From contig QCCP01000008.1 of NCBI GenBank assembly GCA_003281225.1, positions 1 to 64,000 of the forward strand: a DNA stretch of 64,000 nucleotides, read 5' to 3'. This document shows, piece by piece, positions 15,213-33,929 of this stretch. Every line of letters begins with the position of its first letter. Positions within the stretch are counted from its first letter, which is position 1. This DNA is from Prochlorococcus sp. AG-347-L20. GTDB taxonomy: Bacteria; Cyanobacteriota; Cyanobacteriia; PCC-6307; Cyanobiaceae. A model generated the notes under the pieces. The model was given only the letters and a program-made list of their open reading frames with translations. It made no database searches and was not told the DNA's origin. The position numbers were made by a program, and so were the translations under genes.

Positions 15213-15635
15213 TTAATTAAAAGGTGTAATGTTATTAGTAGGAGCTATTAATAGGATTTCAAAAACTATCCCAGTTATGGCAATTGGTAAAACCCAAATA
15301 CCAATAAATCTATGATCAAAAAATCTCAAATGATCTTCACCCTTAAAAACATTCCTCAAAGCAGTAAATAGTGTTTCTGGTTGTTTATATGATGGACCAT
15401 TTTTAGAGGGAGAATATGGTTTAACAAAAGCGGATGAGGAAGAGAACTTTGCAAACTTTCTAATGAAATAAATTGGCAAAACCCATATAGCAACAAATCT
15501 TCCTCCTAACCATTGCCTAGCATTAGGAAGGGCATACTCTTTTATAGATTTATTCTCTGGCATCCCAGATTCTAAATCTCTATAAATATTTTCTAAAGTA
15601 TCTTTTTTATTTAATTCATTAATCATTAAATTCAC
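15213..15635 (-). CDS. Two-span membrane protein with an internal duplication
   Basis: 140 residues; a second ATG at 15626 gives a shorter version. Two membrane segments begin with nearly the same sequence, GRFVAIWVLPIYFI and HRFIGIWVLPIAIT, joined by a 50-residue soluble linker. This points to internal duplication of a single-span unit. The protein opens the 15-18 kb cluster of small membrane proteins. Not recognised. Confidence 0.6.
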   Translation of the reverse strand: MNLMINELNKKDTLENIYRDLESGMPENKSIKEYALPNARQWLGGRFVAIWVLPIYFIRKFAKFSSSSAFVKPYSPSKNGPSYKQPETLFTALRNVFKGEDHLRFFDHRFIGIWVLPIAITGIVFEILLIAPTNNITPFN

Positions 15636-16107
15636 CTATAGATGAGATAAATTCTCTAAAATTTAAATATTTAATAAAAATATTCCTAACTACTAAAATA
15701 ACTAAAACGTAGTTAAGAATATTTTTGTTGGCTAGGTTCATAAAGACGGATTGTAAACCGTTGCAGATGCGCCAAATATCTACATATTCTTTATAAATAA
15801 AAAACTTTTTTTTTAAAAGTAAATAATATACAAAGGCATAGATATTTTTTAATTGAAAGAGTTTATATTTGATACTGAAGATTAACCTTATATTATTTTC
15901 TTTTCTAAAAATATTTAAACCTCATTTTCTAAGATTGCGAAAAAGAAAATGAGGTTAAAGGGAGGTTCTCATTACAAACCGTACTTATCAAAGCTAGCGG
16001 CTAGTAGATTGCCCTAATATCTACTTTTATATTTATATAATGATTTTCTTAATTTAGAAAGATTAATTTTATACAAATAAGTGTTTTATATTTTATGTAA
16101 TTTTTAT
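15636..16107. other. 470-base non-coding interval with a 13-bp hairpin
   Basis: No coding frame is supported. It contains a perfect inverted repeat, AACCTCATTTTCT at 15918-15930 with AGAAAATGAGGTT at 15944-15956, lacking a clear T-run, and a tRNA-anticodon-arm-like stretch near 15746-15761 that does not fold into a tRNA. Confidence 0.4.
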
Positions 16108-16206
16108 TTAGGAAAAGCTAATTAAGGCACTTACTATTCTTATTGAAAGATGAAAAAAAGCGTAAAGAGAAACTGCAAAAAATAAATACTGTTCTATTGG
16201 AATCAT
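16108..16206 (-). CDS. Hypothetical 32-residue membrane peptide
   Basis: MIPIEQYLFFAVSLYAFFHL then SIRIVSALISFS: one membrane helix with His in the middle. Length and shape match PetG/PetL/PsbM-like peptides, but the sequence does not match any of them as remembered. It follows the two PsbY-like genes on the same strand with 34 bases between, so it may be in their operon. Confidence 0.45.
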   Translation of the reverse strand: MIPIEQYLFFAVSLYAFFHLSIRIVSALISFS

Positions 16207-16240
16207 GACAATTTAATAAATAAAAATAAATGAATTTAAT

Positions 16241-16429
16241 TTAATTTTTTGTTAAAAAGATATTTTCCAAAATATAACTTTGCTCTACTGATTGATTTTT
16301 TAAAGTCATTTTTTTTGACAAATTATCATCAGGCAATTTAAAAGCTCCCCATTTCCTGAGCCAAAATAAAGTATAGAAAAAGGCAATTACGAAGGGGGCT
16401 CCAACAATAAAGAATCTTATATCCATCAA
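16241..16429 (-). CDS. PsbY-like single-span protein
   Basis: 62 residues, or 61 from the second Met. Its first 30 residues (MDIRFFIVGAPFVIAFFYTL then FWLRKWGAFKL) match the N-terminus of the neighbour at 16439 and the start pattern of PsbY (MD-RVLVV--P). The rest is polar and unmatched. It begins 10 bases after the upstream gene's stop, so the two are co-transcribed. Role in photosystem II is inference. Confidence 0.55.
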   Translation of the reverse strand: MMDIRFFIVGAPFVIAFFYTLFWLRKWGAFKLPDDNLSKKMTLKNQSVEQSYILENIFLTKN

Positions 16430-16438
16430 ATTACCAAA

Positions 16439-16735
16439 TTAATAAGATTTGAACTGCATTGCCAAAATTGCTCCAAGAAAGAAAACAGTTGGAATTCCTA
16501 AAGCGTTTACAGCTGCAGTTCTTACTGTAAACACAGGATAACCTTCTGTTGGTCTGCCTTTATCTGGAATTAGTGCAGAATCTTCCCATACTTGATAGTT
16601 TTTGAAAGGAGCAACTCCCTTCTTTGGTAGTCCAAGTGGTGTCAATCTAAATACATCCCATCTACCTAACCAAAAAACTGTAAATATCCAAGAAAATACT
16701 ATTGGTGTAATAACAAGTAAAACTCTAAAATCCAT
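16439..16735 (-). CDS. Fusion-like protein: PsbY-like N-terminus and PsbF-like C-terminus without haem ligand
   Basis: 98 residues with two membrane helices. Residues 1-30 resemble PsbY ([21 protein letters not shown]). Residues 67-98 match the beta subunit of cytochrome b559 (PsbF): [23 protein letters not shown]. In PsbF the haem is bound by a His in the pattern AVH-LG; here position 77 is Asn (AAVNALG), so it should not bind haem in the normal way. The linker between is about 35 residues. It could be a photosystem II assembly or protection factor that mimics the b559 site. Family similarity is from memory, not a search. Confidence 0.6.
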
Positions 16736-16962
16736 TTTTATAAAGTAATAATAAATTTGGTAATTATTTTGACCTTTTAAAATTAATAATTGATTAAATC
16801 ATTAACTTATATTTATATAAAAACACTTAATAACATTATTTTTAATCATTAATCACAACTAATTATGATTAATTGATTTTTTTTAAGTATATTTTTTAAA
16901 TAAAAATATTTGAATATTTAGTTTGATGTAGATTTAATTTAATTAGAAAATTAAAAAAAAAT

Positions 16963-17328
16963 ATGGAAAATTTTAGATTTTTACTTTTTGGAATCTCAGG
17001 AGTAAGCGTTGTTTTTTGGGTTGCAGTAATAACATTGTGGCATACTTATATGTTCCCAAAATTCTTTAATGAAGATAAAGGTTTAAATTCAGTTATCAAT
17101 CAAGAATTGAATGTCTCAACCGACCCCATTTTAGGCAACTTGGTTAAAAGTAGCAATTTCAAAAGTAGGGATAAATATTCAATGAAAAATTTTGTTGTGG
17201 CAGATTTTTCATCAAGCAATAATTTCACATTAAATAAACTCTATACAACGGTAATGATTGGAGTAACATTTGCAAGTTTTATATTTCTCACTTATGGATT
17301 AAGTAGCTCTATTACATCGATTAGTTAA
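16963..17328 (+). CDS. Two-span membrane protein of the photosystem-like small-protein cluster
   Basis: 121 residues: an N-terminal helix (FRFLLFGISGVSVVFWVAVI), a 60-residue soluble linker, and a C-terminal helix (LYTTVMIGVTFASFIFLTYG). The plan, helix-linker-helix with an N-terminal M--FR-LL, parallels the fusion protein at 16439. The FTLNKLY before the second helix recalls the LNR-SLY of PsbL, a weak resemblance. Divergently transcribed from 16439. Confidence 0.5.
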   Translation: MENFRFLLFGISGVSVVFWVAVITLWHTYMFPKFFNEDKGLNSVINQELNVSTDPILGNLVKSSNFKSRDKYSMKNFVVADFSSSNNFTLNKLYTTVMIGVTFASFIFLTYGLSSSITSIS

Positions 17329-24403: not shown

Positions 24404-25927
24404 ATGCAATATTATTTAAATGATAAAAAATTAAATAAGATTGAAAAGCAAAAGGCGGAGAAAGATGGTCTGAAAATTTTTGAAGAATTAGACGATTATG
24501 CTCTTAAAGGGTGGGAAGAGATGGATGAAGTAGATTTGCAAATGCGCTTAAAGTGGTATGGCCTTTTTTGGAGACCAAAAACTCCTGGAAGATTTATGAT
24601 GAGGCTTAGAGTTCCCAATGGAATTTTAAACTCTAATCAGTTGAGAGTAATCGCTTCAATAGTTGCTAGATACGGAGAAGACGGTTCTGCAGATATAACA
24701 ACTAGGCAAAATATTCAATTAAGGGGGGTTTTGATAAATGATCTGCCAGATATTATTAAAAGACTTAGAGAGGTTGATATTACATCCGTTCAGTCTGGAA
24801 TGGATAACCCAAGGAATGTTACTGGCAATCCACTAGCGGGAATTGATCCTGCAGAAATTATAGATACAAGAAAATATACTTCTGAATTAGAAAATTACTT
24901 AACAAATTCTGGTAATGGCAACCCCGAATTCTCGAATTTACCAAGGAAGTGGAATACTGCAGTTGCAGGAGCAAAAGATAATTTTCTTCTACACAATGAT
25001 CTTATCTTTCATCCTGTTTTTAAAAATGGAATATTAGGCTTTGGTGTCTGGGTAGGAGGAATTTTATCAGCAACTTTGAATGCTTATGCTATACCTCTAG
25101 ATGTCTGGGTAGAAGAAAAAGATATATGCAAAATAACTGGAATTATTTGTTCCCTTTGGCGAGATAATGGGGATAGATTTCTAAGAAATAAGGGAAGATT
25201 TAGATATTATTTGAACTCTATAGGTATCGAAAAATTTAGAGAACTTGTAGAAGAAAAATTTGGAACTTTATCGAACGATCCAGGCTCAATTTTCAACGAA
25301 AAACAAAGAAGTTTATTTGGTATTAATAAACAAAAACAGAATAATCTTTACTTTGCTGGATTACATGTTCCGGTAGGAAGATTATGTGTAGAAGACATAC
25401 AAGAAATTGCAAGATTAAGTGAAAAATATGGACAGAGTGAAGTAAGACTAACCGAAGATCAAAATCTAATTATTGTTGGCCTGAAAGATAATATTTTAGA
25501 AGAATTTGGTAATGAAGAAATTATTAATAAATTCAAATTAAATCCATCCCATTTTTCAGCGAGTACTGTTTCATGTACAGGGAGTAGTTATTGTAGCTTT
25601 GCTCTTGCAAATACCAAAGATATAGCAAGGAATATTTCTGAAAAATTAGATCGAGAACTTGAATTATCAGAGGAGGTTAAAATCCATTGGACAGGTTGTC
25701 CAAATAATTGTGGACAAGCTCATATGGGTGGTATTGGCATGACTGGTACAAAGGTAAAAAAAGAGGGAGGAGGAACTGAGGATGGATATAATGTCAGTAT
25801 TGGAGGAAGACAAGATCACCTGCAAACATTAGGTGAAACCGAATTTAAAAAAGTTAGTAAACATGAAATTTATAATTTAATCAAAGAAATTTTAATCAAC
25901 AAGTTTAATGCAAAGTTAAAAACCTAA
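24404..25927 (+). CDS. nirA: Ferredoxin-nitrite reductase
   Basis: 507 residues. Reduces nitrite to ammonium with six electrons from ferredoxin. Cys ligands of the 4Fe-4S/sirohaem centre are visible: SCTGSSYC at about 389-395 and TGCPNNCG at about 430-436. The two ferredoxin-like halves each carry the sulphite/nitrite reductase pattern (TTRQNIQLRG; RLTEDQNLIIVG). Normal length. Starts the rightward operon with the nirX-like gene nine bases after it. Confidence 0.95.
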   Translation: MQYYLNDKKLNKIEKQKAEKDGLKIFEELDDYALKGWEEMDEVDLQMRLKWYGLFWRPKTPGRFMMRLRVPNGILNSNQLRVIASIVARYGEDGSADITTRQNIQLRGVLINDLPDIIKRLREVDITSVQSGMDNPRNVTGNPLAGIDPAEIIDTRKYTSELENYLTNSGNGNPEFSNLPRKWNTAVAGAKDNFLLHNDLIFHPVFKNGILGFGVWVGGILSATLNAYAIPLDVWVEEKDICKITGIICSLWRDNGDRFLRNKGRFRYYLNSIGIEKFRELVEEKFGTLSNDPGSIFNEKQRSLFGINKQKQNNLYFAGLHVPVGRLCVEDIQEIARLSEKYGQSEVRLTEDQNLIIVGLKDNILEEFGNEEIINKFKLNPSHFSASTVSCTGSSYCSFALANTKDIARNISEKLDRELELSEEVKIHWTGCPNNCGQAHMGGIGMTGTKVKKEGGGTEDGYNVSIGGRQDHLQTLGETEFKKVSKHEIYNLIKEILINKFNAKLKT

Positions 25928-25936
25928 AATATATTA

Positions 25937-26665
25937 ATGAGCAAAAGTGAATCTGAAATATTAGAAGTTTTAAATGGATTAGGTTCAAAAAAATTAGATC
26001 TTGATATTCTTTTTTCCTACTATTCATTGAAATTATCTTTTGAGATTCGCAAAGTTATTTCGGAAAAAATAGGAATGCAAGAAAGAAAAGGCTATTTTTT
26101 ACTTGAAAAGATGATAAAAAAATTTGGCCTTAAAGTTGAATTTATTGAGGCCCTTAAATTAACAAATGAAAAAGATGCAAAAGATCTTTTACTAAAAAAT
26201 CTTTATCAAAATAATAAGTTAAATATTCACATAATTAATGCTTTAGAGCCCTGGGGAGGAGAAATCGAACTTACATTAATAAGAGAAATATTCGATATTT
26301 GCGAAATAGATTTTTGGATTGCAGGTCTTAATATTCTTCATTTCAAAGCTCATCAATTAACTGATCAAATATTATTATCTTTTATTGATCAAATAAAAAT
26401 TTACGATGATTTCAAAATCAACTACAAGATAATCTCTATTTTAAAAAGAAGAGAAAGCGAAATAGTTTGTAAATTACTTTATAAATATTCTTTAAATAAA
26501 GAATTAGAAATCGCTAAATATGCAATTTTTTCTTTAGGGAGCATTTGGAATGATAATAGTTTTGAACAATTATCAAAATTAGAAAATGAGATAAAAGATC
26601 CTTCTCTACTTAAATGCATAAAAAATCAAAAATTGATCTCAAATCAATTTCTAATAAATAAATAA
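25937..26665 (+). CDS. nirX: NirX-like HEAT-repeat protein of the nitrite/nitrate cluster
   Basis: 242 residues, all helical with repeating HEAT-like pairs (for example WIAGLNILHFKAHQLTDQIL and KYAIFSLGSIWNDNSFEQLS). Not an enzyme by sequence. A gene called nirX follows nirA in Prochlorococcus nitrate clusters; its position nine bases after nirA supports that name. Role unproven, perhaps assembly or partner docking. Confidence 0.65.
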   Translation: MSKSESEILEVLNGLGSKKLDLDILFSYYSLKLSFEIRKVISEKIGMQERKGYFLLEKMIKKFGLKVEFIEALKLTNEKDAKDLLLKNLYQNNKLNIHIINALEPWGGEIELTLIREIFDICEIDFWIAGLNILHFKAHQLTDQILLSFIDQIKIYDDFKINYKIISILKRRESEIVCKLLYKYSLNKELEIAKYAIFSLGSIWNDNSFEQLSKLENEIKDPSLLKCIKNQKLISNQFLINK

Positions 26666-26674
26666 ACTAGAGAA

Positions 26675-27169
26675 TTATTTTTTTAACTTATCAATGAGAT
26701 TTATTAAATTACAAGGTTTTGTATTTTGATTAAGTTGATAAGAAATTATATCTTGCCAACCTGTCATAACAGCATCCTTAGATCCTGGCAAAACGAATAA
26801 AAATTTACCATTTGCAGACCCCGCAATACACCTACTTTGTAAAGTACTAGTTCCTATCTTTTTAAATGATAAAAATCTAAAAGTCTCCCCAAAACCATCA
26901 ATCTCTTTATCTAATAAAGGTCTAATAGCTTCAGGAGTAACGTCCCTAGCTGTAATTCCTGTACCACCTGTAGTTATAATCACATCAATATTTGGATCTG
27001 AGATCCAATCGCTTGTATATTTTCTAATTAAATAAATATCATCTTTGCAAATTATCTTATCAACGACATTGTGTCCTGATCTCTCGGCCTCGTTAAGGAG
27101 ATAATTTCCACTCTCATCATTTTTTGTGTTACGAGTATCAGAAACAGTAAGCAAAGCTATAGAAACCAC
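26675..27169 (-). CDS. moaB: Molybdenum cofactor biosynthesis protein MoaB (MogA/MoaB family)
   Basis: 164 residues, a single MoCF-binding domain. Landmarks: LTVSDTRNTKNDESG at the start, TTGGTGITARDVTPEA (molybdopterin-binding loop) and LPGSKDAVMTGW. MoaB/MogA adenylates molybdopterin before Mo insertion. Converges with nirX and diverges from moaD. Confidence 0.92.
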   Translation of the reverse strand: MVSIALLTVSDTRNTKNDESGNYLLNEAERSGHNVVDKIICKDDIYLIRKYTSDWISDPNIDVIITTGGTGITARDVTPEAIRPLLDKEIDGFGETFRFLSFKKIGTSTLQSRCIAGSANGKFLFVLPGSKDAVMTGWQDIISYQLNQNTKPCNLINLIDKLKK

Positions 27170-27204
27170 TTAAAATTAAACCATTAGTTACTAGATCACT
27201 ATAG

Positions 27205-27456
27205 ATGGAAAGTGAAAAATCTAACAAAATTAAGGTGGTTTTATTATCTAGTGTCGCTGAAGATCTAGGATGGAATGAAAAATTTCTTACAATTGAAGGG
27301 TCTCAAATGAAGGTTTTTTCTGTATGGAATTTAATTAATTCTAATTTACCGCAAGATAATATTATCGTTTCTATTAATCAAGAAATTACAGATATGGATG
27401 CGATGATTAATCCGGATGATGAGGTGGCATTTATGCCAATGTTTACCGGTGGATAA
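27205..27456 (+). CDS. moaD: Molybdopterin synthase sulphur carrier subunit MoaD
   Basis: 83 residues, ubiquitin-like. Ends in MFTGG; the C-terminal Gly-Gly is thiocarboxylated to carry sulphur to precursor Z. The 3' end overlaps the moaE start. Divergent from moaB with a 35-base gap. Confidence 0.9.
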   Translation: MESEKSNKIKVVLLSSVAEDLGWNEKFLTIEGSQMKVFSVWNLINSNLPQDNIIVSINQEITDMDAMINPDDEVAFMPMFTGG

Positions 27457-27901
27457 TTTAAGAATAAAATTTAAAATCCTAGAAGAGACTTTTAACCCTT
27501 ATAAAGAATTCGAACTTTGGGAAAAGGTAAATAAAAATTCAGCAAACTCATTTTTTATTGGGAGAGTAAGGCCCTTTGATCAATTTGGAAATGATTTAAA
27601 GAAACTAGAAATTGTTCATTATAAAGGAATGACCGAAAATTATATTAAAAAATATTTAATGAAAATTTCTGAAAAACAGGATGATTTATGTATTTTTCTC
27701 TTGCACAGGATAGGTTTCATTTACCCTAACGAGCCTATTATTTTAATAGCAGTGAGTGCTAATCATAGAGGCATTGCAAATAAATATCTCCAAGAAATAC
27801 TTGAATTTACAAAATACAAAATTCCTTTTTGGAAAAAAGAATGGACTTTCAAAGGATCCTCATGGGTAAAAAAGAATACTGACTTAGGCTTTGAATTATA
27901 A
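27449..27901 (+). CDS. moaE: Molybdopterin synthase catalytic subunit MoaE
   Basis: 150 residues. Start chosen at GTG 27449, which overlaps the moaD stop by eight bases and gives the usual MoaE length. Landmarks: FFIGRVRPFD (typically F-G-VR), HRIGFIYPNEP, and the C-terminal PFWKKEWTFKGSSWV, whose Lys residues correspond to the catalytic lysines. Forms the alpha2-beta2 synthase with MoaD. Confidence 0.88.
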   Translation: MDNLRIKFKILEETFNPYKEFELWEKVNKNSANSFFIGRVRPFDQFGNDLKKLEIVHYKGMTENYIKKYLMKISEKQDDLCIFLLHRIGFIYPNEPIILIAVSANHRGIANKYLQEILEFTKYKIPFWKKEWTFKGSSWVKKNTDLGFEL

Positions 27902-29158
27902 AAAATTATTTTTTAAAAGTTGTGCCCATAATAAATTTCCTTTTTGACAAAAATCAATTTCAGAGGGTATTTCTATTAATAAATCTGAATTAGATATTGA
28001 ACTAATCTTTGATGAGGATTGTTCTTCAGAAATATCTGCAATTAATTCACCTTCTTCATTAACGATAAGTTTTCCTCTAAGCAATTCAGGTCTCCCTTTT
28101 CTTCTTTTCAAATCAGAATTCAGCTTAACCTTAATCCTAAGAGGGAATTCAATATTAGTAATTCCTTCAAGTTTCTGAAGTGCGGGCCAAACAAGTTGGA
28201 TAAAAGTAATAGCTGCTGAAGCGGGATTCCCAGGTAATCCAAAATAAGGAATTTTTTTGTTTATCAATCCAAAAGCGAAGGGTTTTCCTGGCTTTAAAAA
28301 TAGTTTCCAAAATTTAATCTCTCCTATCTCGTTAATAATATCTTTTAAAAAATCTTTTTTACCCACTGATATCCCACCAACTGAAATAACCACATCATTA
28401 AATTCAGAAATATTTCTAAGAGAATTTTTAATATTTTGATAATTATCTTTTTCTATATGAATTTCATTAATTTCAAATCCAAGATTTTTTGCGATTGATT
28501 TTATCAAAATACTATTACTTTCCCATATTTCTCCTTTTTTTCTTGCAGATCCTGATTTGATAAGTTCATCTCCAGTAATTAGTAAACCTAATTTAGAAAA
28601 TTTACTAACTTTTATAGTTTTTATCCCACAACTTGCTAATTTACTTAAAATCCCAGGTGTAATCTTTACCCCTTTCTTGATTAATATTTCACCTTTAAAT
28701 ACTTGATCATTTTTTTCTCTAATCCAAGAGTTATTAGATGATGTTTCTTTTTTAACAATATACTCATTTCCGTTTAAAAATTCTAAAGAAACTTGTTCTT
28801 GAGGTATCACAGAAAAACAATTATCTGGCACAAATGAACCTGTGCTAATAGTTACAGCTTCACCTTTTTTAAGAAGATCATTAAATGGCTTTCCGGGGAA
28901 AGACTCTCCAACAATTTTCCATTTATTCACTTTAGTTGATTCTCCTAACGCATATCCATCCATAACTGATGATCTATAACCTGGTATATCTTCCTCAGAT
29001 AAGATTTCCTCCATAGAAACTTTTCCAAGTGCTTCGTCTAAGTTGATCTCTTCCTTATGTAAAATTGCATTATTCACTATTAAAGTATCTATCTCTTCCA
29101 AGATTTTTTTAATAGCATCGTTTAAATAAAGACCCTGATTATTGATATCAATTCCCAT
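27896..29158 (-). CDS. moeA: Molybdopterin molybdenumtransferase MoeA
   Basis: 420 residues with the usual MoeA domain order. Landmarks: YRSSVMDGYALG, ITGDEL, GGISVGKKDFLKDI and GLPGNPASA, all of the MoCF-binding and interdomain regions. Inserts molybdenum into adenylated molybdopterin. Ends overlap moaE on the other strand by six bases; lies 12 bases after moaC on the same strand. Confidence 0.93.
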   Translation of the reverse strand: MGIDINNQGLYLNDAIKKILEEIDTLIVNNAILHKEEINLDEALGKVSMEEILSEEDIPGYRSSVMDGYALGESTKVNKWKIVGESFPGKPFNDLLKKGEAVTISTGSFVPDNCFSVIPQEQVSLEFLNGNEYIVKKETSSNNSWIREKNDQVFKGEILIKKGVKITPGILSKLASCGIKTIKVSKFSKLGLLITGDELIKSGSARKKGEIWESNSILIKSIAKNLGFEINEIHIEKDNYQNIKNSLRNISEFNDVVISVGGISVGKKDFLKDIINEIGEIKFWKLFLKPGKPFAFGLINKKIPYFGLPGNPASAAITFIQLVWPALQKLEGITNIEFPLRIKVKLNSDLKRRKGRPELLRGKLIVNEEGELIADISEEQSSSKISSISNSDLLIEIPSEIDFCQKGNLLWAQLLKNNFL

Positions 29159-29170
29159 TATTGTGAGTAC

Positions 29171-29650
29171 TTAACTTCTTTTTAATATTCCATTTTTACC
29201 ACCTTTTTTTTCTAAAAGGCGAATATTATCAATAGTCATAAAAGGATCTAAAGCTTTAAGCATGTCATATAGAGTGAGAAGACCAATTGAAACTGATGTA
29301 AGAGCCTCCATCTCAACACCTGTTTTAGAATGAGATTTGCAAAAAGCAATAATTTTAATTGCTTTAATTGATTCACAAATTTCAAAATCAATTGAGATTT
29401 TATTCAATGATAAATTATGACAGAGAGGAATAAGTTCTGAGGTTTTTTTTGCACCATTTATTGCAGAAAATCTAGCCGCCGCAAAAATATCACCTTTTTT
29501 AATTTTTTCATTTTTTATTTTTTCTAATATTTCTTTGTTTAAATTAATATATCCTTCTGCTAAAGCCTCTCTTTTAGTTTCTACTTTATCTGAAATATCA
29601 ACTATGTTCATTTCTCCCCTTGCATTAATATGAGTTAAAGATTTATCCAT
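29171..29650 (-). CDS. moaC: Cyclic pyranopterin monophosphate synthase MoaC
   Basis: 159 residues, full length. Landmarks: MDKSLTHINARGEMNIVDIS, IPLCHNLSLNKISIDF, and KTGVEMEALTSVSIGLLTLY with DMLKA. With MoaA it makes precursor Z from GTP. Read with moeA, 12 bases apart, as a moaC-moeA operon. Confidence 0.94.
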   Translation of the reverse strand: MDKSLTHINARGEMNIVDISDKVETKREALAEGYINLNKEILEKIKNEKIKKGDIFAAARFSAINGAKKTSELIPLCHNLSLNKISIDFEICESIKAIKIIAFCKSHSKTGVEMEALTSVSIGLLTLYDMLKALDPFMTIDNIRLLEKKGGKNGILKRS

Positions 29651-29757
29651 TTTTATTTAGCAATTTATCCAATAATACAAAAAATAAAATTTTTGATAAA
29701 GCTAATATCAATTTTTTATACTTAGCATTAATTTATTAATAAAATATCAATTTAATT

Positions 29758-30219
29758 TTGGTTAAGAGTCAATCAAATCATTATTTTAATTTCGAGGATG
29801 ATTTTATTAAAGACTTAAGATGCATTCCTCTCTGTGTAAGAAGGAAACTTGATTTAATTGGAATAAAATTAAAACTTACTCATTGGCAAGATTTTAATTT
29901 AATTGAAAAAAATAAGATAGTTGATTGGCCAGATTCAAAAAACGATCTCATTGATTTAAAAACTTTTTTAAAAGAAATTACATCTAATTCAAAATATGGA
30001 GAAGCAAAAGAAATAGAAATTTCAATTAATCAACCTTGGCAAAATAAAAATAAAGTTCCTGACCAAGTTTTAAAATCGGCACTAGCGAGGGGAATTAATA
30101 TTTCAGTTAAAAAATGGAGAAATTTAAACGAATTAGATAGATTTGCTTTTTGCAAATTAGTTAGACCAAGTCATGAACACAACAATTTGGATAGAGCATT
30201 TGATGAGATTCTGAAATAA
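29758..30219 (+). CDS. narM: Nitrate reductase associated protein (NarM-like)
   Basis: 153 residues: FNFEDDFIKDLRCIPLCVRR, KLDLIGIKLKLTHW, and a Trp- and Pro-containing C-terminus. The pattern F-FE-DF--LRCIP--VR-KLD is that of the cyanobacterial nitrate-reductase-associated proteins needed for active NarB. Starts with TTG (29758); no ATG lies in the correct place. Converges with narB. Confidence 0.75.
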   Translation: MVKSQSNHYFNFEDDFIKDLRCIPLCVRRKLDLIGIKLKLTHWQDFNLIEKNKIVDWPDSKNDLIDLKTFLKEITSNSKYGEAKEIEISINQPWQNKNKVPDQVLKSALARGINISVKKWRNLNELDRFAFCKLVRPSHEHNNLDRAFDEILK

Positions 30220-30228
30220 GATTATTGC

Positions 30229-32340
30229 CTAGTTTGGAATAATTATTACTGAGCATGCTTTTAATTCCGGTTGTTTTGATATCGGGCATGACTTTTCATG
30301 CATCAAAGAGTTTACTTCACACATATTTTTTTGACTAAAACCCCAATGCATTGGTAAAAAAACTGTACCTGCTTTAATTTTGTCAGTAATCTGAACTTTT
30401 GCTTGAACTTCCCCTCTTTTAGATTTAATTTTTACTATTTCTTCATTTTTGATTTTTAAAGATAAAGCATCTTTAGAATTAATTTCCAATAACGGTTCTG
30501 GATTCTTTTTTGTAAGTTTTTGAACTTTAGAAGTTCTTGTCATTGTATGCCATTGACTTAGATATCTTCCAATTGTCAAAATTAGTGGGAACTCATCTGA
30601 AGGGGGTTCAGCCAACCCAATAGGATCATCAATACAAAAATTTGCTTTGCCAGTCTCAGTTGGGAAATAACCATCTTCATACAATCTTTTTGAAGATGTA
30701 CTAGGTACGCTGCCTTTAGGATAAGGCCATTGTTGAGGACCATGATTTTTTAATAATTGATATGATAATCCGCTCATATCGCATAATCTTTTTGTAGTAG
30801 TTTTTAAAAATTCATCATAAACTTCCGATGAAGATTCATATTCAAATTGTTTGAAATAGCCTATCTTCTGTCCTAATTCAGCAAATATTTGCCAATCTGG
30901 TTTTGAATTTTTATTCGATTCTCTGAAAGATGGGCAAAGGGTTACTCTCCTTTCTGAATTTGTCATAACACCATCTTTTTCGCTCCATTGAGCTGCGGGC
31001 AATACTAGATGAGCATATTTAATTGATTCACTTTGTTCATAAGATTCGTTGAGGATAATTAAAGGACATTTTAAAAGTGCTTTTTTTACAAAGTTTAAAT
31101 TAGGCATGCTAACCAAAGGGTTCGTAGCTGCAATCCACCAAATTTTCACAGATCCTTTTTTTATAGCTTCTATTTGTTCAAATGCAGATAGACCCTGTTT
31201 TGCAGATATCTTTCCCTCAGGGAACCCCCATATTTTTTCAATTTCATTCCTATCTATTTTATTTTTTACAAACCTATATCCTGGAAGAAGGTGAGATAGT
31301 CCTCCTGCTTCTCTCCCACCCATAGCGTTTGGTTGGCCAGTTAAGGAAAAAGGACCAGAACCTTCTTTGCCTATTTGGCCGGTCATTAAATGAAGATTTA
31401 TTAGCCCATTTACTGCTGCTGTACCCTCTTGCCTTTGATTCAAACCCATCGACCAAAGACTTAGAACATTTTTGCTTTCTCCCCATAATTTTGCAATATC
31501 AATAATTGTTTTCTCCGATATATTGCAAATTTCACTTATTTTTTTTAAATCCCATTTTTGTATGTGTTTTACAAAATCAAGATAGCTTTCGGTCGACTTA
31601 TCAATGAAATTTTGATCAGTTAATTGATTCTTATAAAGATAATTCGCAATCCCAATAAATAAAAATAGATCTGTTCCAGAAGAAATTTGTAAATAAAAAT
31701 CTGCTATGGATGAAGTTTCAGTTTCTCTTGGATCAATTACTATTACTTTTAAATTATCATTTAGATTTCTTTTACGTTTTTTAATTCGATCAAAAAGAAC
31801 GGGATGACATTCTGCAGTATTTGTCCCTATTAATAAAATTAAAGAGCAATGATCAATATCTTCATAACAACAAGGTGGGCCATCAGAGCCAAAACTTCTG
31901 TTATATCCAGCTACTGCTGAGCTCATACATAGTCTTGAATTAGCATCAAAATTATTTGTGCCTATTGCTCCCTTGAGAAGCTTTTGGGCTACGTAATAAT
32001 CTTCAGTATGAAATTGACCTGAACCATACATAGCTATTGAATCAGGTCCATAATTTTTTATAGAACTCAAAATATTTTCTTTCAGAATTTCGTATGATTT
32101 GTCCCAGGAAATTTCTTTAAATTCTTCATTCAAATTTTCCCTATAAAGTGGTTCTTTTAATCTCCCGTCTTTTAAAGTCTCACATACTGTTGCTCCTTTT
32201 ACGCACAATTTACCTTGAGTTGAAGGACTATCCCTATCTCCACTTACTAACCATTTATCATCAGAAACCGAACTTTTAGGCTTCATTTTTAAACCACATC
32301 CAACACCGCAATATGGGCATTGACTTTTAGCAAAATTCAT
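30229..32340 (-). CDS. narB: Assimilatory nitrate reductase, ferredoxin-dependent
   Basis: 703 residues. The N-terminal 4Fe-4S site is complete: CPYCGVGC at residues 8-15 and KLCVKG at about 46. The molybdenum-binding region contains DANSRLCMSSAVAGYN, with the ligand Cys, and the C-terminal domain has LTIGRYLSQWHTMTR, the bis-MGD-binding barrel. Converts nitrate to nitrite with ferredoxin. nrtP lies 35 bases upstream on the same strand, consistent with an nrtP-narB operon. Confidence 0.95.
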   Translation of the reverse strand: MNFAKSQCPYCGVGCGLKMKPKSSVSDDKWLVSGDRDSPSTQGKLCVKGATVCETLKDGRLKEPLYRENLNEEFKEISWDKSYEILKENILSSIKNYGPDSIAMYGSGQFHTEDYYVAQKLLKGAIGTNNFDANSRLCMSSAVAGYNRSFGSDGPPCCYEDIDHCSLILLIGTNTAECHPVLFDRIKKRKRNLNDNLKVIVIDPRETETSSIADFYLQISSGTDLFLFIGIANYLYKNQLTDQNFIDKSTESYLDFVKHIQKWDLKKISEICNISEKTIIDIAKLWGESKNVLSLWSMGLNQRQEGTAAVNGLINLHLMTGQIGKEGSGPFSLTGQPNAMGGREAGGLSHLLPGYRFVKNKIDRNEIEKIWGFPEGKISAKQGLSAFEQIEAIKKGSVKIWWIAATNPLVSMPNLNFVKKALLKCPLIILNESYEQSESIKYAHLVLPAAQWSEKDGVMTNSERRVTLCPSFRESNKNSKPDWQIFAELGQKIGYFKQFEYESSSEVYDEFLKTTTKRLCDMSGLSYQLLKNHGPQQWPYPKGSVPSTSSKRLYEDGYFPTETGKANFCIDDPIGLAEPPSDEFPLILTIGRYLSQWHTMTRTSKVQKLTKKNPEPLLEINSKDALSLKIKNEEIVKIKSKRGEVQAKVQITDKIKAGTVFLPMHWGFSQKNMCEVNSLMHEKSCPISKQPELKACSVIIIPN

Positions 32341-32375
32341 AAAATTTCTTTTATAAATATCTAAAAAGTTATTGG

Positions 32376-33929
32376 TTAAACATAATTTTCAGCTTTTTCT
32401 CCTTCATAAGCATCCGCGAATGATCCTTGAGGTTCCTTTAAAAAGAAATAACAGAAGAATCCAACTATTAATCCTGCTATACCTAAAACTTGGAAGAAGG
32501 CACTATTTGAAGCGGCAATTATTTCTGGAGAAGGATCTTTGCCTCCACCCATCCATAAAGGTAAAAGGCTATAAATATTTAAATAAGTTACCGCACCAAC
32601 ATTTCCATAAGCCCCAACCAATCCAGCTATTTGTCCTGTTACTCTTTTTTTAACTAAGGGTACTAAAGCAAAAGTTGAACCTTCTCCAGATTGTACAAAA
32701 AATGAACAAAGCATCGTTAAAAATACAGCCATAAGAATTCCTGCTGATCCTGTAAAAGTTCCAGGTTTTATTAAAGACATCAATAGATATCCAAACCCTA
32801 ATCCCATAGTTAGGAATCCCATTGTATTTTTTCTATTGCCTGTTCTGTCAGATATCAATCCTCCGGCAGGTCTAGCTATTAAATTCACAAATGCATAACA
32901 TGATGCAAGAATTCCGGCTACAGCTTTAGGTAAATCAAATGTAAATTCAAAGAAACTAGGAAGCATTGAAACTACTGCCAATTCTGATCCAAAATTTACG
33001 ATGTATGTTAATTCTAAGATCGCTACTTGTTTGAATTCATATCTATCTTCTTTAGGGTAAATTTTAGTTCCATTTAATAGTTCAATATTCGTTCTTATAA
33101 TTCCCCAAGTTTGGAAAATAAACCAAGCAAGGACTGCGATTAAGGCTATTGGATAAGTAGATGAAGTAAGGAAACCTACTTTTTGAAGTCTCCAACATAG
33201 GACTGAAAGAATTGCTGCGAATGGGACATTCATTCCAATTAAACCCCAGAAATCTCTTACGCTCGTTACTTCTAAACCAGCTGTTTTTGCAGGCCTTTGA
33301 TAAGGTTTTCCTGGAGGTGTATCAGTCACACTAAAGAAATAAATAATTCCATAAACGAAAGAAATAATTCCTGTAAGAGCAATAGCTCCCCTCCAATTAA
33401 GTACAGCTCCAGTAGGTAACTCAAACCCTCCTGAAAAAGACAAGAATCCAGCTACGGCAACAAGAGAAAGAGCAGAAAAGGCAGATCCAAAATTCCCCCA
33501 TCCTCCATATATTCCCTCAGCCAAACCAATTTCTTTCGGAGGGAACCACTCAGAGACCATTCTTATTCCGATAACAAAACCTGCTCCTACTATTGATAAA
33601 AGCAATCTAGCAATAACAAGTTGATTGAAGTCTTGAGCACTAGCAAATAATAAACATGGCACGACAGAAAATATCAAAATTGTTGAGTAAGTTTTTCTTG
33701 GGCCAAATTTATCCAATAACATTCCAATCAAAACTCTTGCAGGGATAGTCAAAGCGACATTACATATTGCTACTGTTCTAATTTGAGCAACAGATAAACC
33801 TAAATCGGCTTTAACAGTAGTTGCAAGAGGAGCGAGGTTAAACCAAACAACAAAAGTAAGGAAAAAAGCAAACCAGGTGAGGTGAAGAGTTCTATATCTG
33901 CCATTTAAAGACCAAACGTCACTTAACAT
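32376..33929 (-). CDS. nrtP: Nitrate/nitrite permease of the MFS (NrtP/NapA)
   Basis: 517 residues with about 12 helices. The nitrate signature region is present: GIYGGWGNFGSAFSALSLVA and, in the second half, ARPAGGLISDRTGNRKN. The large loop after helix 6 (FSVTDTPPGKPYQRP) and the general NNP-family sequence support this over other MFS groups. Imports nitrate and nitrite. First gene of the leftward nrtP-narB pair. Confidence 0.92.
   Translation of the reverse strand: MLSDVWSLNGRYRTLHLTWFAFFLTFVVWFNLAPLATTVKADLGLSVAQIRTVAICNVALTIPARVLIGMLLDKFGPRKTYSTILIFSVVPCLLFASAQDFNQLVIARLLLSIVGAGFVIGIRMVSEWFPPKEIGLAEGIYGGWGNFGSAFSALSLVAVAGFLSFSGGFELPTGAVLNWRGAIALTGIISFVYGIIYFFSVTDTPPGKPYQRPAKTAGLEVTSVRDFWGLIGMNVPFAAILSVLCWRLQKVGFLTSSTYPIALIAVLAWFIFQTWGIIRTNIELLNGTKIYPKEDRYEFKQVAILELTYIVNFGSELAVVSMLPSFFEFTFDLPKAVAGILASCYAFVNLIARPAGGLISDRTGNRKNTMGFLTMGLGFGYLLMSLIKPGTFTGSAGILMAVFLTMLCSFFVQSGEGSTFALVPLVKKRVTGQIAGLVGAYGNVGAVTYLNIYSLLPLWMGGGKDPSPEIIAASNSAFFQVLGIAGLIVGFFCYFFLKEPQGSFADAYEGEKAENYV

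What the first reader, a model, noticed from the sequence alone, without database searches (positions are those of the whole stretch)
16439..16735. PsbY-PsbF-like fusion protein that has lost the cytochrome b559 haem histidine
The C-terminal helix keeps PsbF's signature ([18 protein letters not shown]) but the haem-ligand His is Asn77. The N-terminal helix resembles PsbY, a neighbour of cytochrome b559 in PSII. A single polypeptide carrying both suggests a pseudo-b559 unit: it could replace PsbF/PsbY in damaged or assembling PSII and make a haem-free complex. I know of no described counterpart.
Basis: partly seen in the sequence, partly recalled or inferred. Interest (0 to 1): 0.8.

Follow-up and report, generated by a model that had tools for sequence, protein, structure and literature searches.

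The report
Haem-ligand-less PsbY–PsbF fusion in Prochlorococcus
The marine cyanobacterium Prochlorococcus carries a fused photosystem II subunit whose haem-binding histidine has become asparagine, and in some lineages this fusion is the only version found, so a part thought universal in oxygen-making photosynthesis is probably altered there.

Summary
Window 16439-16735 (-) encodes 98 aa: a PsbY-like helix, a loop, and a PsbF helix whose cytochrome b559 haem-ligand His is Asn77. All 112 distinct long-form ORFs matched in the loci held have Asn, none His. The gene is under strong purifying selection. NCBIfam already names the family 'cytochrome b559 subunit beta, long form'.

The new point is replacement. 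Genus g56 (14 of 14 listed genomes), complete genome G202 and a divergent clade of the window's genus (drafts, 55-67% complete) show no canonical psbF and no psbY above cut-off. Where psbE was seen, psbF is excised from psbE-psbL-psbJ (12 of 12 genomes). There the fusion is the only PsbF found. The window's own genome keeps canonical psbF and psbY as well.

PsbE keeps its haem His in those 12 genomes, so b559 with altered ligation fits at least as well as a haem-free complex; untested. Two orphan membrane proteins, A and B, occur in 20 of 21 fusion-bearing genomes and, intact, in 1 of 12 without it.

Verdict: real; first reading partly supported; new variant of a known kind.

The parts
16439..16735 (-). 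F: 98-aa PsbY-PsbF fusion ('cytochrome b559 subunit beta, long form'), haem-ligand His replaced by Asn77
16616..16735 (-). PsbY-like N-terminal half of F (residues 1-40)
   Evidence: profile hits only PsbY chains in PDB, singly weak; hhalign against canonical PsbY 81.6%
16442..16543 (-). PsbF-like C-terminal half of F (residues 65-98), without haem-ligand His and with Thr73 in place of the PsbF Trp
   Evidence: PF00283 above cut-off; alignments
16505..16507 (-). codon AAC, Asn77, at the haem-ligand position
   Evidence: sequence; 112 of 112 distinct matched long forms have Asn
16241..16429 (-). S: 62-aa protein (TTG start; ATG at 16426) related to the N-terminal half of F; S motif found in 65 of 80 named Prochlorococcus loci with F
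   Evidence: hhalign 98.6% to the F N-terminal half
16108..16206 (-). T: 32-aa peptide, conserved downstream of F/S in high-light and some low-light genera
   Evidence: motif match in 138 F-bearing loci records, none of the printed ones from g56 or g4; no Pfam or NCBIfam match
15213..15635 (-). B: 137-140-aa membrane protein of unknown family, co-occurs with F
   Evidence: no PDB, Pfam or credible NCBIfam match
16963..17328 (+). A: 121-aa membrane protein of unknown family, divergent from F, co-occurs with F
   Evidence: no credible PDB, Pfam or NCBIfam match
16736..16962 (.). A-F divergent intergenic region with an AATCAT...ATGATTA-type inverted repeat in most aligned high-light copies
   Evidence: alignment; function unknown

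Best explanation
F is a genuine photosystem II subunit: one polypeptide that occupies the PsbY and PsbF positions next to PsbE and forms a cytochrome b559 whose beta subunit cannot supply the haem-ligating histidine. Shown by sequence: the fusion, the fixed Asn, strong purifying selection, and absence of both psbF and psbY only in genomes that have F. Inferred: (1) F assembles with PsbE in the normal b559 place; (2) in lineages without psbF every PSII has this altered b559, while in lineages with both (such as this genome) F gives a second, alternative b559/PSII form; (3) the haem is held by the PsbE His alone (or with another weak ligand) at altered redox potential, or is absent. F works with the co-inherited proteins A and B, and probably T and, in high-light strains, S. 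The flavodoxin and pcb genes near A in some low-light genomes suggest, weakly, a link to iron stress or Pcb antennas.
For: PsbF and PsbY matches. Asn in 112 of 112 distinct matched copies; no His anywhere in 99 of 99 trimmed copies. dN/dS 0.018 in the PsbF part. Only the long form, no second PsbF match at E up to 0.001, in 14 of 14 g56 genomes listed (5 genomes without any match are not listed, genus unknown). PF00283 above cut-off: psbE and F only, in 7 of 7 g56 genomes tested, in G202, and in 4 of 5 genomes of the G122 clade (the fifth, G163, shows F alone). psbE-psbL gap 29 bp (7 g56), 34 bp (G202) or 108-115 bp (4 of the G122 clade) against 157-172 bp in the 10 genomes with psbF. No PsbY over cut-off in 14 of 14 g56 genomes tested and in G202, against 7 of 7 F-less genomes with it. 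psbF-less state in two places on the psbB tree (2 changes; well-supported branches alone force only 1). A and B each in 20 of 21 F-bearing genomes and, intact, in 1 of 12 F-less genomes. His-ligand mutants of PsbE and PsbF in Synechocystis regained autotrophic growth when psbEFLJ was amplified (PMC9214863, passages).
Against: No protein, spectroscopic or structural data. PsbF His mutants of Synechocystis (Asn is not among the replacements listed) lose photoautotrophic growth (PMC4709441, passages), so an Asn beta subunit would need compensating changes. F is found in only 89 of 200 genus genomes (many incomplete). G394 has A and B but no F. AlphaFold models are of low confidence (mean pLDDT 58.7 and 62.0) and give only two clear long helices. 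The psbY link is not exclusive: G104 and G105 have F and canonical psbF but no PsbY over cut-off. The psbF-less clade near the high-light group consists of drafts 55-67% complete.
Confidence: 0.7

Rival explanations
1. Haem-free variant: F with PsbE forms an apo-b559 that only scaffolds PSII, saving one iron per PSII, used always in psbF-less lineages and under stress (for example iron limitation) in strains that also keep psbF.
For: No His in 99 of 99 trimmed F sequences. In T. elongatus, apo-b559 mutants (H23A-alpha, H23M-alpha) assemble active PSII (PMC4709441 passages). A flavodoxin gene (from general knowledge an iron-saving substitute; family confirmed in the 4 tested) lies beside A in 7 of 7 g4/g56 loci scanned and in G209.
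Against: PsbE keeps its haem His in 12 of 12 psbF-less genomes, and F keeps the Arg of the TVR motif that contacts a haem propionate in known PSII (contact: PMC4709441 passages). No expression data. The flavodoxin motif was not found in the high-light loci scanned, 3-18 kb long.
Confidence: 0.3
2. F is not a PSII subunit in high-light strains but a paralogue recruited, with A, B, S and T, to another thylakoid complex (for example a Pcb antenna assembly); canonical PsbF does all the b559 work there.
For: High-light strains with F keep canonical psbF, and most tested keep psbY. A lies near pcb genes in G209, G237 and G275. Unlinked A, B and F still co-occur.
Against: The same family replaces psbF and psbY in other lineages. 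The number of Pcb/CP43/CP47-family genes does not separate F-bearing from F-less genomes of the window's genus (4 in 18 of 20).
Confidence: 0.25
3. F is a decaying, non-functional psbF duplicate.
For: One copy of the window's genus is frameshifted near its end (G042), one is a fragment (G101), and F is missing from many genomes.
Against: dN/dS 0.07 overall, 0.018 in the PsbF part; invariant Asn; sole PsbF found in complete genomes.
Confidence: 0.02
4. psbF and psbY are present in g56, g4 and the G122 clade but missed by assembly gaps or divergence, so nothing was replaced.
For: The G122-clade genomes are only 55-67% complete; PsbY is short and its profile is weak.
Against: Several g56 genomes and G202 are single contigs of 99-100% completeness. 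The psbE-psbL junction is contiguous with no room for psbF (29 or 34 bp). Six-frame searches with PF00283 at E up to 1 find only psbE and F above cut-off.
Confidence: 0.03

Closest known systems
PsbF (cytochrome b559 beta subunit; PF00283, TIGR01333)
   Same: YP[VI]FTVR...AMQF helix over the PsbF core; PF00283 above cut-off; sole PsbF homologue found in some genomes
   Different: Haem-ligand His is Asn, the neighbouring Trp is Thr (except in G212), and a PsbY-like helix and loop are fused in front; the window copy is below the TIGR01333 cut-off (54.5 against 61.15 bits), though the G212 and G202 copies pass it
NCBIfam NF002720/NF002717 'cytochrome b559 subunit beta, long form'
   Same: The same protein family: full-length match, 8.9e-63 to NF002720 (above cut-off) and 1.9e-37 to NF002717 (below its cut-off)
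   Different: The name implies an ordinary beta subunit; it does not mention ligand loss, the PsbY half or the replacement of psbF and psbY
PDB 7ymi/7ymm chain F, 99 aa, deposited as 'Photosystem II protein Y' (organism recalled as Acaryochloris marina)
   Same: One chain carrying both a PsbF and a PsbY helix
   Different: Opposite order (PsbF first) and the haem His is kept (alignment)
PsbY (PF06298)
   Same: MDxRxxLVxxPI start; a profile of the N-terminal halves hits only PsbY chains in PDB
   Different: Below the PF06298 cut-off on its own; lacks the FNIxxxA stretch of canonical PsbY
Engineered b559 axial-ligand mutants (Synechocystis, Chlamydomonas, T. elongatus; reviewed in PMC4709441 and PMC9214863, passages read)
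   Same: b559 without one His ligand
   Different: Laboratory mutants; here it is a natural state fixed in whole lineages, on the beta side

Membership tests
PsbF / cytochrome b559 beta | PsbF transmembrane segment recognised by family profile | tested here: met
   PF00283 32.1 bits against cut-off 30; TIGR01333 only 54.5 against 61.15
PsbF / cytochrome b559 beta | axial haem-ligating His | tested here: not met
   Asn77; 112 of 112 distinct matched long forms have Asn
PsbF / cytochrome b559 beta | encoded in the psbEFLJ operon | tested here: not met
   F lies elsewhere; psbE and psbF are on contig C7, F on C8
PsbF / cytochrome b559 beta | assembles with PsbE in PSII | not testable with these tools
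   inferred from replacement of psbF
PsbY | PF06298 match over cut-off | tested here: not met
   12.9 bits against 24
PsbY | homology by profile to PsbY | tested here: met
   8 of 8 PDB hits at E up to 1 are PsbY, best E 0.0012; hhalign 81.6%
NCBIfam 'cytochrome b559 subunit beta, long form' | full-length match above curated cut-off | tested here: met
   NF002720 208.8 bits against 127

The most novel reading that the evidence does not exclude
Natural Prochlorococcus lineages run all of their oxygen-evolving photosystem II without a bis-histidine cytochrome b559: psbF and psbY were deleted and replaced by one histidine-free fusion, so b559 there is mono-His or haem-free. High-light relatives, like this genome, can switch between a normal and an altered PSII using an accessory module (A, F, S, T, B), perhaps to save iron or retune photoprotection.
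Probability: 0.5. Interest if true: 0.92.

Novelty: new variant of a known kind. Interest (0 to 1): 0.8.

Why it matters
[quoted passage not shown] A natural organism in which one ligand is permanently gone would make the question testable without mutants: compare redox potential, photoinhibition and iron quota in strains with psbF only, both genes, or the fusion only. It would also change the subunit inventory of PSII in Prochlorococcus and give a first functional handle on orphan small-protein families (A, B, T, S).

Tried and rejected
Viral origin: no relative in viral contigs by the tool's peptide patterns, none in phage records by tblastn, and only a weak PHROGs match (E 0.36). Fusion outside Cyanobiaceae: in 292 phylum genomes (matches at E up to 1e-8) no match outside the family covers the N-terminal half without an internal stop. 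A reverse fusion suspected in G440 from a long open frame proved to be ordinary PsbF with an unrelated upstream frame. Pcb gene number as explanation of the distribution: rejected, 18 of 20 genomes of the window's genus have 4 PF00421 matches with or without F. Structure: AlphaFold on two alignments (13 and 14 sequences) gave low-confidence models, so no fold search was run. Charge on the loop (6 K/R, 5 D/E) only weakly supports a cytoplasmic loop. A, B and T: no credible relative in PDB (A and B only), Pfam or NCBIfam. Literature: 10 searches of the PMC library showed no description of ligand loss or of psbF/psbY replacement in Prochlorococcus in the listings, or in the passages I read of 9 papers; only PMC6517427 mentions a 'PsbF-like protein' gene. 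Most subscription papers and the supplements were not searchable.

Full report
What is there. The ORF at 16439-16735 is on the minus strand and encodes 98 aa. Its C-terminal third is PsbF by Pfam (32.1 bits, cut-off 30), by PDB matches and by full-length match to NCBIfam NF002720 'cytochrome b559 subunit beta, long form' (8.9e-63). It is below the cut-off of TIGR01333, the ordinary PsbF model (54.5 against 61.15). At the haem-ligand position it has Asn77. Its N-terminal half is below the PsbY Pfam cut-off, but a profile of 11 such halves, run against 177,635 PDB sequences at E up to 1, returned 8 chains, all PsbY, the best at E 0.0012. hhalign against 8 canonical PsbY sequences gave 81.6%. AlphaFold gives two long helices, about 3-25 and 69-96, at low confidence. 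The organism is Prochlorococcus: the 80 best named genome loci with F all carry Prochlorococcus titles or, in a few, uncultured Synechococcaceae (242 relatives were found, 80 kept).

It is conserved and selected. In the loci held, 171 records (112 distinct stop-to-stop ORFs, one cut by a contig end) matched by my PsbF motif are long forms with Asn and none has His; 17 records (8 distinct) of canonical PsbF all have His. Records overlap (one genome can appear several times), the loci are those the tools returned, not every match, and a copy too divergent for the motif would be missed; of 134 further profile hits outside the motif only those with PsbF-like strings were printed, two, both S. In the matched long forms the Trp of the PsbF 'VRW' is Thr except in G212. 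In 99 distinct trimmed F sequences there is no His at any position. Median dN/dS, from 1500 sampled pairs of 84 distinct gapless 98-codon genes (1181-1333 pairs kept, dS between 0.1 and 1.5), is 0.072 for the whole gene, 0.075 for the N-terminal 30 codons, 0.108 for the linker and 0.018 for the PsbF part.

Distribution. In the genus, 89 of 200 genomes have the long form (own included; one frameshifted, one a fragment; counted by me; many genomes incomplete). In the family sample, 44 of 251 genomes in 9 of 59 genera have it (counted). In a phylum sample of 292 genomes no match outside the family covers the N-terminal half without a stop. In the family sample, 163 of 168 genomes at least 90% complete had some match; 5 had none, unexplained. 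Strain names (MED4 = G015, MIT9301 = G172, AS9601 = G109, MIT9312 = G313, NATL2A = G306, SS120 = G209, MIT9211 = G275), and so the words high-light and low-light, are my recall from genome lengths.

Replacement of psbF and psbY. This is the main result. The window's genome has canonical psbE-psbF (C7), psbY (C3) and F (C8). In genus g56, 14 of 14 genomes listed show only the long form and no canonical PsbF match (5 no-match genomes are not listed and their genus is unknown). A PF00283 search of 7 of these, of G202 (g4) and of 4 genomes of a divergent clade of the window's genus (G122, G135, G078, G089) found psbE and F only above cut-off; a fifth clade member, G163, showed F alone. In G258, G291, G234 and G212 neither psbE nor canonical psbF was found above cut-off, so they say nothing. 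Below the cut-off the profile also hits unrelated control genomes, so such hits were ignored. At psbE the operon reads psbE-psbL-psbJ: the gap is 29 bp in 7 g56 genomes, 34 bp in G202 and 108-115 bp in the four clade genomes, against 157-172 bp in 10 genomes with psbF. In the clade that gap begins ATGAATAATT, which I read as a relic of the psbF start. No PsbY over cut-off was found in 14 of 14 g56 genomes, in G202, or in 5 of 5 clade genomes (55-67% complete); 7 of 7 F-less genomes tested have it. Exceptions: G104 and G105 have F and canonical psbF but no PsbY over cut-off; G212 (90% complete), G312 (89%), G258 (76%) and G264 (70%) also lack it. On a psbB tree of 28 genomes the psbF-less state needs 2 changes; starred branches alone force only 1. 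The 24 rows of F-bearing and window-genus genomes form one side of a branch (100/100) from four outgroups; G122 and G135 group beside the high-light genomes at 94/76, which is not strong.

What happens to the haem. PsbE keeps its His (RYWI[IV]HAV) in 12 of 12 psbF-less genomes, with HAVT to HAVA, FIAG to FVAG and STG to SSG in g56 and G202, and IAG to ISG in the G122 clade. A kept His argues against simple loss of the haem site, but PsbE could keep it for other reasons. In the literature, PsbF His mutants of Synechocystis lose photoautotrophic growth, whereas T. elongatus apo-b559 mutants on the alpha side assemble active PSII (PMC4709441, passages); His-ligand mutants of Synechocystis can regain growth by amplifying psbEFLJ, and PsbY is needed for the high-potential form in Arabidopsis (PMC9214863, passages). 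So altered ligation and no haem are both possible; I favour altered ligation slightly.

The neighbourhood. Next to F lie S (62 aa, related to the F N-terminal half; hhalign 98.6%), T (32 aa), B (137-140 aa) and, divergently, A (121 aa). In the 80 named loci a motif scan found B in 77, S in 65 and A in only 26, the A motif being strict and flanks sometimes cut. A and B belong to no family I could find. By profile search in 33 genomes, A and B each occur in 20 of 21 F-bearing genomes (the miss, G234, is 64% complete). Each occurs intact in 1 of 12 F-less genomes: G394, where F and S are missing between A and T. G172 also has a broken remnant of B. In g11, g39, g53, g14 and the G122 clade some of A, B and F lie apart yet still co-occur. 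T was matched by motif in 138 loci records with F; none of the distinct ones printed is from g56 or g4. A flavodoxin gene (NF006738 in the four tested) lies beside A in 7 of 7 g4/g56 loci scanned and in G209, where a pcb gene follows; the motif was not found in the high-light loci scanned. This is only a hint of an iron or antenna role.

Mechanism, with steps marked. Shown: fusion, fixed Asn, selection, sole-copy state in some lineages, co-inheritance with A and B. Inferred: F sits at the PsbY and PsbF positions beside PsbE; the linker, about 43 aa, spans the cytoplasmic face (weakly supported by charge); haem ligation is changed; in strains with both genes F makes a second PSII form. Not shown: expression at protein level. 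A proteome of SS120 quantified 'PSBF_PROMA' (PMC5451487, passages), but I cannot tell whether that is canonical PsbF or F. A transcript of a 'PsbF-like protein' gene (PMT9312_RS06075) is reported in MIT9312 (PMC6517427, one passage); that it is F is my inference.

Known or new. The family is in NCBIfam, and a reverse-order fusion exists in PDB (7ymi_F). Ten library searches showed no account of ligand loss or of psbF/psbY replacement in Prochlorococcus (listings, and passages of 9 papers); the library lacks most subscription papers. I rate it a new variant of a known kind.

Noticed in passing
window 24404-33929: Nitrate assimilation cluster: nitrite/sulphite reductase-type gene, MoaC, nitrate-reductase-like molybdoenzyme and NarK-type nitrate transporter, which from general knowledge only some Prochlorococcus carry.
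   Followed up: partly
window 15213-17328; A5 and A6 alignments: Two orphan membrane protein families (A and B) with near-perfect co-occurrence with F. Among A copies matched by my pattern, 147 of 148 records have His in the LWHTYMFP-type motif and one (G275) has Leu; the pattern may miss other variants.
   Followed up: partly
L041, L042 (G050): One genome of the window's genus carries two copies of the A-F-S-B cassette at distant places.
   Followed up: no
G104, G105: Genomes with F and canonical psbF but no PsbY over cut-off: perhaps a separate loss of psbY.
   Followed up: no
window 16736-16962: Inverted repeat of the type AATCAT...ATGATTA between A and F in most high-light copies aligned, possibly a regulator site.
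   Followed up: no
L228, L229, L230: Small proteins of the type LLDFATQLPHPSDIGxxKPSGGFxL interleaved with pcb genes in low-light genomes.
   Followed up: no
family sample: 5 of 168 genomes at least 90% complete had no PsbF-like match at E up to 0.001 (G267, G284 and G315 among those listed).
   Followed up: no
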